Shown here: positions 15,348 through 17,125 of the stretch, in pieces
How positions within the stretch are numbered: the first letter of the stretch is position 1
How the letters are laid out: every line of letters begins with the position of its first letter
Source of the DNA: Gammaproteobacteria bacterium
GTDB taxonomy: Bacteria; Pseudomonadota; Gammaproteobacteria; UBA6429; Thiohalophilaceae
Assembly (NCBI GenBank): GCA_026196045.1
Contig: JAPHRJ010000059.1
Coordinates: 1-64,000, forward strand
Length of the DNA: 64,000 nucleotides
Direction of reading: 5' to 3'
Translations under genes and position numbers: made by a program
The notes under the pieces: generated by a model
Database searches by the model: none
The model's input: only the letters and a program-made list of their open reading frames with translations
Told to the model about the DNA's origin: nothing

Positions 15348-16496
15348 GTGATTGTGGTACAAAAAATTACAATGGAAGAATTCATTGCTGGAGAATTAAA
15401 GCAGCAGTTTGAATACAAAAGTTTTCAACCAAATTTTGTTAATCTGCAATGGAGTTGGGATAGCCCAGAAATTAATACTCGATTAGAAAAATCTTCGAGA
15501 GCACTTGCTGAATTAAATGCCTTTTCTCTTATCGTACCAGATATTGATCTTTTTATTCGTATGCATGTGCAGAAAGAAGCAAGTCAATCTAGCAAAATAG
15601 AAGGTACACAAACTCATATTGATGATGTGATTTTAGATGTCTCACAGGTCGATCCGGAGAAACGTGATGACTGGCAGGAAGTTCAAAACTATGTTCAAGC
15701 CATGAGTGATGCTATTAATGATCTTGAAACACTTCCACTTTCTGTTCGGCTATTAAAGAAAACACATGAAATATTAATGCAAGGTGTTCGTGGGGAGCAT
15801 AAAGCTCCAGGAGATTTTCGTATTTCTCAAAATTGGATTGGCGGGACAAATTTAAATAATGCTGTATTTGTCCCACCACATTTTGAAGATGTACCTGAAC
15901 TCATGAGTGATCTTGAAAAATTGTGGCATAATGAATCCATTAATGTACCTGAGCTAATCCGAATAGCAATCAGTCACTATCAATTTGAAACAATTCATCC
16001 TTTTTTAGATGGCAACGGCCGTATTGGTAGGCTTCTCATTACGCTATATTTAATTAGCCGTGGAATACTAAACAAACCTTCCTTATATCTATCAGATTAT
16101 TTAGAAAAGAATCGTATTGCTTACTATGACGCTTTAACCCGGGTTAGGGTATCAAATGACTTAGTACATTGGATTATATTTTTCTTAGATGCTGTTATTG
16201 AAACGGCTGAAAGTAGTAAAAAAACCTTCCAAAAAATAATGAGTATGCGTAATGAACTTGAAGCACAAATGGTCACCTTAGGCCGACGCGCAGAAAATGC
16301 TAGAAAATTATTATTGCATTTATATACATCACCAGCAGTGACTGGTGGTGATGTTGCACGATTATTAGACGTAACACCACGTGCGGCTAATGGCCTAATC
16401 AACGAATTTGTAAAATTAGAAATACTTAAAGAAATTACGGGATATCAGCGGAATAGGCTATTTATATTCCGTAAATACATACAACTCTTTGGTTAA
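15348..16496 (+). CDS. Fic-domain protein (AMPylase-type) with N-terminal inhibitory motif
   Basis: 382 aa from the GTG at 15348. A GTG at 15354 is better spaced from the GGAG at 15341 and would give 380 aa. The Fic core HPFLDGNGRIGR is complete at 217-228, with catalytic H217. Such enzymes usually transfer AMP to protein hydroxyl groups. An autoinhibitory motif S-x3-E-G is present at 81-86 (SSKIEG), making this a class II Fic that needs no separate antitoxin. A winged-helix-like C-terminal part (about 310-375) suggests DNA binding. The gene is AT-rich relative to its neighbours and flanked by AT-rich spacers, consistent with horizontal gain. The target is unknown. Confidence 0.93.
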   Translation: MIVVQKITMEEFIAGELKQQFEYKSFQPNFVNLQWSWDSPEINTRLEKSSRALAELNAFSLIVPDIDLFIRMHVQKEASQSSKIEGTQTHIDDVILDVSQVDPEKRDDWQEVQNYVQAMSDAINDLETLPLSVRLLKKTHEILMQGVRGEHKAPGDFRISQNWIGGTNLNNAVFVPPHFEDVPELMSDLEKLWHNESINVPELIRIAISHYQFETIHPFLDGNGRIGRLLITLYLISRGILNKPSLYLSDYLEKNRIAYYDALTRVRVSNDLVHWIIFFLDAVIETAESSKKTFQKIMSMRNELEAQMVTLGRRAENARKLLLHLYTSPAVTGGDVARLLDVTPRAANGLINEFVKLEILKEITGYQRNRLFIFRKYIQLFG

Positions 16497-16530: not shown

Positions 16531-16569
16531 ATTATAATATACTTTAGCGGCCTAAAAGTATACTATAAT
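16531..16569. terminator. Long AT-rich inverted repeat downstream of fic
   Basis: Arms of 17 and 18 nt (16531-16547 and 16552-16569) pair with one mismatch and one bulged base around a 4-nt loop, starting 34 bp after the fic stop. A smaller palindrome AGCTAT-A-ATAGCT lies at 16515-16527. The position suits a transcription terminator of fic, although the tail is only moderately T-rich; it could also be the edge of an inserted segment. Confidence 0.4.
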
Positions 16570-16827
16570 ATTTTATGGTTTACTTTATTGAAGTAAAGGT
16601 AAATCATGCATACAAATACAAACCTTAATTAAACCAATAAGATATACGGTTTTTAAGGAATTAGGTTAAGAATAGGTTACCAACGCTGTACCTACTATAA
16701 TTTACTTCCCCCGTTAGGCGATGCCGAGTTGCGACTTTTGTAGCGGGATCAGTGAGACGTTGTTTGAGCGAATGGGGTTGATGAGCGAGTTTACGTCGAG
16801 CCCCGCTACAAACTAGCAGCGAGGGTA

Positions 16828-16907
16828 TCTGATTATGTGGATACATAATCAGACAAGCCTTCGGGAGCGTTTCTTTGGTTACTTTCTTATCGCCATAAGA
16901 AAGTAAC
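16828..16907. repeat. Two perfect palindromes in a gene-free spacer
   Basis: Perfect 11-bp arms TCTGATTATGT and ACATAATCAGA (16828-16838, 16843-16853, loop GGAT) are followed by perfect 13-bp arms GTTACTTTCTTAT and ATAAGAAAGTAAC (16878-16890, 16895-16907, loop CGCC). The second arm overlaps the start of the downstream tandem repeat. From memory, the GGTTACTTTCTT…AAGAAAGTAAC motif resembles an intergenic repeat common in gammaproteobacteria; I cannot confirm this here. Confidence 0.6.
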
Positions 16908-17125
16908 TCGCCCACAGCCATGTAATGGCGGGCGAAAGCTTTTAATAAAACAGGCTTGTGTGCCTATCGGCACGACCGTTGGGCACACAAAATCCGTACC
17001 CAACCTACATAGCTAAGAAAGTAGGTCGCCCTAAGCGTGTAAGCGCGGGGCGAAAGCCTTTAATAAAACGGGCTTGTGTGCTTTCAGCACAACTGTTGGG
17101 CACTAACCCCGTGCCCAACCTACAT
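16897..17125. repeat. Two-copy structured tandem repeat, period 118 bp
   Basis: Copy 1 runs 16897-17014 and copy 2 from 17015 to 17125. Both share AAGAAAGTA, CGCCC…GGGCGAAAGC, TTTAATAAAAC, GGCTTGTGTGC, GTTGGGCAC and CCCAACCTACAT. Each copy can fold into three hairpins. The middle hairpin is GTGCC-TATC-GGCAC in copy 1 and TGTGCT-TTC-AGCACA in copy 2; the last is GTTGGG…CCCAAC in both and extends to nine pairs in copy 2. The paired changes suggest selection on structure. Copy 2 ends 5 bp before the uvrD stop codon, so it may lie in the uvrD 3' transcript. I see no gene in it. Confidence 0.75.

What the first reader, a model, noticed from the sequence alone, without database searches (positions are those of the whole stretch)
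16897..17125. Structured 118-bp tandem repeat with compensatory changes, abutting uvrD
Two copies share sequence blocks and the same three-hairpin layout. The middle hairpin changes from GTGCC/GGCAC to TGTGCT/AGCACA while staying paired, and the last hairpin lengthens from six to nine pairs. Such paired changes suggest selection on RNA or DNA structure. The position, ending 5 bp from the uvrD stop on the antisense side, suggests a 3'-end or small-RNA role, but a mobile palindromic repeat is the simpler explanation.
Basis: partly seen in the sequence, partly recalled or inferred. Interest (0 to 1): 0.6.

Follow-up and report, generated by a model that had tools for sequence, protein, structure and literature searches.

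The report
Widespread folding repeat between bacterial genes
The small tandem repeat beside uvrD is the duplicated tail of a larger hairpin-rich DNA element that is scattered between genes in many beta- and gammaproteobacteria, keeps its fold while its paired letters change, and for which I found no named family.

Summary
The repeat is real, but it is only the tail of something larger. Directly upstream (about 16710-16939) lies a full copy of a dispersed, hairpin-rich element. Its stems change sequence freely while staying complementary; a short core, TGTTTGAGC-loop-GCGAGTT, and a linker, TTTCTTTGGTTACTTTC, stay fixed. The two 118-bp units duplicate its 3' end (half of one hairpin, the next hairpin, a short hairpin), each ending in a GTAG-type REP palindrome. 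The window's genome (2.7 Mb) holds at least seven related places; exact core matches occur in 40 of 299 genomes of the phylum, up to 36 per genome, against almost none for the reversed control. Own arms pair far better than arms swapped between copies (10.7 versus 6.0, sd 1.4), and six copies from this genome show 9 pairs changed on both sides (0 of 500 shuffles). Rfam has no match. Y1/RAYT transposases do not track the element: one genome has 36 copies and none. Copies favour gene 3' ends. One copy shows an arm rewritten as the exact complement of the other, so part of the pairing arises by template switching. Best reading: a non-autonomous, structure-defined interspersed element of the REP/ERIC/MITE kind, apparently undescribed, mover unknown.

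The parts
16710..16729 (+). 5' end of the full-length element, CCCGTTAGGCGATGCCGAG; CCCG 16710-16713 can pair with CGGG 16862-16865 to close the element (inferred)
   Evidence: same motif starts the copies at C103, C151, C18, C133 of this genome; a closed outer stem is clear in G354, G291, G198 copies
16737..16812 (+). stem A: TTTGTAGCGGG 16737-16747 with CCCGCTACAAA 16802-16812; sequence differs wholly between copies but stays complementary
16756..16797 (+). stem B: GACGT 16756-16760 with ACGTC 16793-16797, flanking the core
16761..16791 (+). conserved core TGTTTGAGC 16761-16769 and GCGAGTT 16785-16791 around a variable terminal hairpin; probable tandem G.A pairs (TGAG/CGAG)
   Evidence: invariant in 21 diverse copies; pattern search with reversed control; the non-canonical pairing is inferred
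16820..16863 (+). hairpin 2: CGAGGG with CCTTCG outside, TCTGATTATGT 16828-16838 with ACATAATCAGA 16843-16853 inside
   Evidence: 5 of 11 inner pairs changed on both sides among six copies of this genome
16866..16883 (+). conserved linker (AGCGTTTCTTTGGTTACT), running into hairpin 3
16878..16907 (+). hairpin 3: perfect 13-bp palindrome GTTACTTTCTTAT/ATAAGAAAGTAAC, 4-nt loop
   Evidence: pairs kept with changed letters in 101 distinct versions
16908..16939 (+). hairpin 4: TCGCCC..GCCAT/ATGGC..GGGCGA; end of the part shared by all copies
16940..17010 (+). tail of unit 1: TTTTAATAAAACAGGC linker, GTGCC/GGCAC hairpin 16960-16973, then a GTAG-type REP on the minus strand (17008 back to 16978, one C.A mismatch)
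   Evidence: REP heads and palindromes as tabulated in PMC2817692
17014..17125 (+). unit 2: duplicated, 5'-truncated tail: half of hairpin 3 (AAGAAAGTAGG), hairpin 4 variant 17026-17053, TGTGCT/AGCACA hairpin 17077-17091, GTAG-type REP on the minus strand 17123-17095
   Evidence: REP pattern at 17097-17123 minus and six more in the genome
17130..19313 (-). uvrD (UvrD/PcrA helicase), its 3' end facing the tail of the element
15348..16496 (+). Fic-family protein gene; with uvrD it makes the element's site a convergent intergenic region

Best explanation
The finding is the duplicated 3' tail of one full-length copy of a dispersed, non-autonomous, structure-defined intergenic DNA element, joined to GTAG-type REP palindromes. 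Shown: the element recurs within this genome and across many beta- and gammaproteobacteria; its helices keep pairing while their letters change; a short core and a linker are fixed; many copies elsewhere sit as head-to-head (5'-to-5') inverted pairs with mirror-image ends; copies are poor in divergent (promoter) regions and lean to gene 3' ends. Inferred: copies spread rarely, through a single-stranded folded DNA form recognised by its core and junctions rather than by stem sequence, by an enzyme acting in trans that is not a Y1/RAYT transposase of the same genome; after insertion they persist between genes where they do little harm; their stems are kept complementary partly by selection on the fold and partly by template-switch replication that rewrites one arm as the complement of the other. 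The second 118-bp unit arose by tail duplication. Any effect on uvrD (3' end of its mRNA) would be secondary.
For: Dispersed copies in the own genome, E down to 2.6e-59. Arms: own-arm complementarity 10.7 versus 6.0 (sd 1.36) for swapped arms, 22 of 37 non-redundant copies beat every swap. Six own-genome copies: 97.4% of cells paired, 9 pairs with changes on both sides (shuffles 3.6), 0 of 500 shuffles reach it, slid controls 0-2. Core present in 40 of 299 genomes, up to 36 copies, reversed control near zero. Inverted 5'-5' pairs in G291, G198, G085, G210 and as a repeated ~440-460 bp unit in Stenotrophomonas. G059 retains only a fused single palindrome where a relative has the whole pair, and G163 lacks it altogether. 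C38 copy: 21-bp perfect palindrome GAGGCTTGTCTGATTATGTGG/CCACATAATCAGACAAGCCTC made by overwriting the 5' arm. Context, 37 non-redundant loci: convergent 13, tandem 21, divergent 3, against 99:301:87 at random points; tail side faces a gene 3' end in 22 of 31 single copies. No match in curated phages and hardly any in plasmids, no Rfam match.
Against: No enzyme was found and no target-site duplication or clean insertion junction could be read; orthologous sites in Stenotrophomonas mostly keep the element, so movement is rare or old. The 3'-end bias after removing redundant loci is moderate and rests on a simple codon-position gene caller. A function as RNA cannot be excluded. Sheared G.A pairing in the core is a reading of the sequence, not a test.
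Confidence: 0.6

Rival explanations
1. It is an ordinary RAYT-driven REP/BIME assemblage: hairpins copied by a Y1 (IS200/IS605-type) REP-associated transposase.
For: The last hairpin of each 118-bp unit has a GTAG head and palindrome like published REPs (Coxiella GTAGGTTGGGC..GCCCAAC, Haemophilus GTAGGGTGGGC..GCCCACC; PMC2817692), seven exact-pattern copies in this genome. Inverted pairs resemble BIME/REPIN layout.
Against: No Y1_Tnp in this genome (93% complete). Y1_Tnp in 12 of 20 element-bearing genomes versus 10 of 20 without; G354 has 36 copies and none, G279 and G198 have 9 and 8 and none. Of the Y1_Tnp loci read, only one had cores nearby and that gene is flanked by its own unrelated REPs. 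The element lacks a GTAG/GTGG head at its own 5' end and is 6-10 times longer than a REP.
Confidence: 0.15
2. It is a structured RNA element: a 3'-UTR or bidirectional terminator/stability element, or a small RNA, maintained by selection on RNA.
For: Strong covariation, convergent and 3'-end location, stable folds on both strands.
Against: No terminator or convincing promoter called; no Rfam relative; copies lie in both orientations beside unrelated genes; perfect palindromes are symmetrical, so both strands fold; template-switch rewriting accounts for part of the pairing without RNA selection.
Confidence: 0.2
3. It is a folded single-strand DNA site used in trans by host machinery (attC-like recombination site or priming/primosome-like site) rather than a selfish element.
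For: Conserved unpaired features with freely varying stems is how attC sites behave (own knowledge); the core GNA mini-hairpin with TGAG/CGAG resembles unusually stable DNA mini-hairpins (recalled, not tested); the 5' end reads CGTTAGGC, which fits a GTTRRRY core site.
Against: No integron integrase was looked for or seen next to copies; no gene cassettes or arrays; the GTTRRRY fit is short and not tested for excess; no assay.
Confidence: 0.1
4. A local tandem duplication of ordinary intergenic sequence with chance hairpins.
For: Short two-copy tandem repeats are common.
Against: Copies elsewhere in the genome and in many other genomes, with covariation.
Confidence: 0.03

Closest known systems
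REP / BIME with RAYT (Nunvar et al. 2010, PMC2817692)
   Same: Dispersed intergenic palindromes, inverted pairs, complementary changes that preserve the palindrome; the last hairpin of each 118-bp unit is itself a GTAG-type REP.
   Different: The main element is about 230 nt with four or more helices, has a fixed non-palindromic core, no GT(A/G)G head, occurs across families with the same core, and does not track RAYT genes.
ERIC/IRU and other enterobacterial repeat units RU-1, RU-2, RU-3 (127, 168, 103 bp; Delihas 2007, PMC2759123)
   Same: Size class, intergenic, MITE-like, no own enzyme, spurious reading frames running through it.
   Different: Stem sequences are not conserved here, only the fold, core and linker; host range is much wider than enterobacteria; no direct sequence comparison was made.
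MITEs with terminal inverted repeats
   Same: Inverted pairs have mirror-image ends (hairpin 4 - hairpin 3 ... hairpin 3 - hairpin 4) and are dispersed as a ~450-bp unit in Stenotrophomonas.
   Different: Single copies are common and have no terminal inverted repeat; no target-site duplication seen; no parent transposon identified.
Integron attC sites
   Same: Works-like resemblance: variable stems, conserved unpaired positions.
   Different: No cassettes, no integrase seen, different core; membership not claimed.

Membership tests
REP (RAYT-associated) | 5' GT(A/G)G head followed by an imperfect palindrome of about 20-35 nt | tested here: met
   Met only by the last hairpin of each 118-bp unit (17123-17095 minus; unit 1 at 17008-16978 minus); seven pattern matches in the genome (heads listed in PMC2817692)
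REP (RAYT-associated) | cognate Y1 RAYT gene flanked by the repeat | tested here: not met
   No Y1_Tnp in own genome; no association across 40 genomes; RAYT loci read carry no element except one coincidence
REP (RAYT-associated) | main element (16710-16939) has the GTAG head and short single palindrome | tested here: not met
   Starts CCCGTTAGGCG, four helices over about 230 nt
BIME/REPIN | repeats in inverted pairs as a dispersed unit | tested here: met
   5'-5' pairs in several genomes, repeated ~450-bp unit in Stenotrophomonas; not in the window copy, which is single; the repeats that are paired are not REPs
MITE | terminal inverted repeats | tested here: inconclusive
   Present in paired units, absent in single copies such as the window's
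MITE | target-site duplication and parent transposase | tested here: inconclusive
   Empty site G163 too diverged to read a junction; no parent found
ERIC/IRU and enterobacterial RU elements | conserved 127-bp (or 168/103-bp) sequence | not tested
   Consensus not compared directly
Any Rfam 15 family | covariance-model match above gathering score | tested here: not met
Integron attC | R''/R' core sites, cassette context, IntI | not tested
   Only a GTTRRRY-like string noticed near 16713-16719

The most novel reading that the evidence does not exclude
A single ancient family of structure-defined DNA elements, recognised as folded single strands through a conserved TGAGC-loop-GCGAG (tandem G.A) core by an unidentified and widespread protein, has spread across Proteobacteria (and possibly other phyla, judging by virus-collection contigs) without any conserved stem sequence, so that sequence-based repeat finders never joined its members.
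Probability: 0.25. Interest if true: 0.8.

Novelty: new variant of a known kind. Interest (0 to 1): 0.55.

Why it matters
A repeat whose exact core pattern is found in about one in eight sampled genomes of the phylum, with no Rfam family and no text match in 5.4 million open papers, is a gap in annotation: it produces spurious reading frames and unexplained intergenic hairpins. It also offers a clean natural test of how palindromes keep pairing (selection versus template switching) and points to an unknown agent that spreads it.

Tried and rejected
Rfam scans of the window and of eight relatives' loci, gathering and permissive: nothing. Literature by sequence strings of the linker and of the core, and by topic: no description found; subscription journals are not covered. 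RAYT as mover: in G246 a Y1_Tnp gene lies between two inverted cores, which looked like an autonomous unit, but reading the region showed that gene has its own GTAGGTCGGATTA REPs, and the parallel spot in G210 holds an ordinary acyltransferase gene (52, 53, 58); rejected. Longest-ORF gene calling for context gave nonsense in GC-rich genomes and was replaced by a codon-position caller, then de-duplicated, which reduced an apparent 59% convergent share to 35% (64). Precise insertion junctions were sought at two Stenotrophomonas loci without a readable target-site duplication. A covariance model was not built because stem B shifts register by one or two bases between copies and an ungapped alignment would have misplaced its pairs; a pattern search was used instead. 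The element in plasmid and phage records: one weak Variovorax match only (46-48).

Full report
The observation. The two units are there: 16908-17010 and 17026-17125 are 81% identical, with blocks spaced 118, 117 and 115 bases apart. Both units fold better than shuffles on both strands. The second unit stops four bases short of the uvrD stop codon (uvrD confirmed by Pfam). On the other side is a Fic-family gene on the plus strand, so the site is convergent.

What it belongs to. A search of the own genome with the finding returned pieces that cover only the junction of unit 1 with its upstream neighbour. With the upstream sequence as query, other places matched over up to 242 bases. Reading them side by side gives one architecture: CCCGTTAGGCGnnGCCGAG; a long stem (A) with an inner stem (B) around the core TTGTTTGAGC-loop-GCGAGTTTA; hairpin 2; the linker GGAGCGTTTCTTTGG; the palindrome GTTACTTTCTT..AAGAAAGTAAC (hairpin 3); hairpin 4; then a variable tail. 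In the window this spans about 16710-16939. The finding is therefore the 3' part: unit 1 is hairpin 4 plus tail; unit 2 is a truncated repeat of half of hairpin 3, hairpin 4 and tail. Each tail ends in a palindrome that, on the minus strand, starts GTAG (GTAGGTTGGGCAC..GTGCCCAAC), the form of REPs tabulated by Nunvar et al. (PMC2817692), with seven pattern matches in this genome.

Covariation. Between copies of this genome stem A is TTTGTAGCGGG/CCCGCTACAAA, GTGCTCAACGG/CCGTTGAGCAC or GTGTGTCGTTTAAAG/CTTTAAACGACACAC. On six copies (in one of which a long insertion in hairpin 2 was cut out by hand), hairpins 2-4 give 97.4% paired cells, nine pairs with changes on both sides and a covariation score of 0.212, none reached in 500 shuffles, with slid controls at 40-48% and 0-2 (six related sequences, so the shuffle count is not a probability). 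Across genomes I took 37 copies with non-redundant arms: own arms scored 10.7 for complementarity against 6.0 (sd 1.36) for arms swapped between copies; 22 beat every swap. The members that do not are mainly bare cores from virus-collection contigs and may be something else. In 21 arm-diverse copies only the core is invariant. Hairpin 3 keeps pairing through 101 distinct versions.

Distribution. The linker-plus-hairpin pattern in named genomes hits Stenotrophomonas, Rudaea (about 30 stretches), Pseudoxanthomonas, Denitromonas, Rhodocyclales, Burkholderiaceae and others, and folds of these show the same plan; a few hits in distant phyla fold at hairpin 3 but were not shown to carry the core. 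The core pattern is in 40 of 299 genomes of the phylum, 36, 33 and 26 copies in the richest, with the reversed control almost empty. Several single hits there may be ordinary coding sequence matched by chance, so 40 is not a count of true carriers, while an exact pattern also misses diverged ones. Contigs of a virus collection also carry core, arms and a downstream palindrome; one matches Haemophilus phage HP1 locally; others look like Bacteroidota to me, which I did not test.

How it may work. Many copies form 5'-to-5' inverted pairs whose ends mirror each other, and in Stenotrophomonas the ~450-bp pair is itself dispersed. At one such locus, a relative (G163) lacks the unit and another strain (G059) keeps only a single perfect palindrome, the two hairpin-3 copies fused. 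At the locus of L105 some strains lack stem A/B by a deletion between short repeats and others have its inner part exchanged for another hairpin. In the own genome, the C38 copy of hairpin 2 has its 5' arm rewritten as the exact complement of the 3' arm. These are expected of palindromes replicated as single strands with template switching. So pairing is maintained at least partly by a mutational route; selection on the fold is likely but not proved. Copies are short of divergent regions (3 of 37 versus 18% at random points) and lean to convergent ones (35% versus 20%), the tail facing a gene 3' end in 22 of 31 single copies. That fits elements tolerated at gene ends; it does not require a function there.

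Who moves it. RAYT was the obvious candidate and fails: none in the own genome, no association in 40 genomes and none in the genome with most copies, no element beside RAYT genes except one coincidence. I found no alternative enzyme. This is the main gap.

Verdict. The finding is a fragment of a real, structured, interspersed element of the broad REP/ERIC/MITE kind, which by these searches has no name in Rfam and no text match in the open literature. The kind is known; the wide host range, fixed core with free stems and independence from RAYT set it apart.

Noticed in passing
window 16661-16921 (-): An 86-aa reading frame (MAVGELLSYGDKKVTKETLPKA...) is just a translation of the element; similar spurious frames run through copies in Stenotrophomonas (..SGAKRRRCLSAASSAP.., ..VSERSEFR..).
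   Followed up: partly
window 16531-16575: AT-rich near-palindrome ATTATAATATACTTTAGCGGCCTAAAAGTATACTATAATAT just after the Fic gene; possibly its terminator or another repeat.
   Followed up: no
G000 C15:40751-40916: Two identical GTAG REPs in inverted orientation 140 bp apart in the own genome although no RAYT gene was found in it.
   Followed up: no
L294-L306 (Stenotrophomonas locus), core region: In some strains the TTTGAGC..GCGAGTT core is replaced by another hairpin (ATCCTGTAGAGCCGACTGCTGGTCGGCTGGCTCT) while the outer stem stays; cassette-like exchange.
   Followed up: partly
L427 (G246 C1:1243000-1246000): A Y1 transposase gene flanked by GTAGGTCGGATTA REPs lies by coincidence between two inverted copies of the element.
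   Followed up: yes
L325, L339, L351, L353, L358, L367: Virus-collection contigs share CGCAAACGAAGTGCGCCAGTGTTTGAGCGAAGCGAGTT with no complementary long arms; a different conserved sequence that contains the same core.
   Followed up: no
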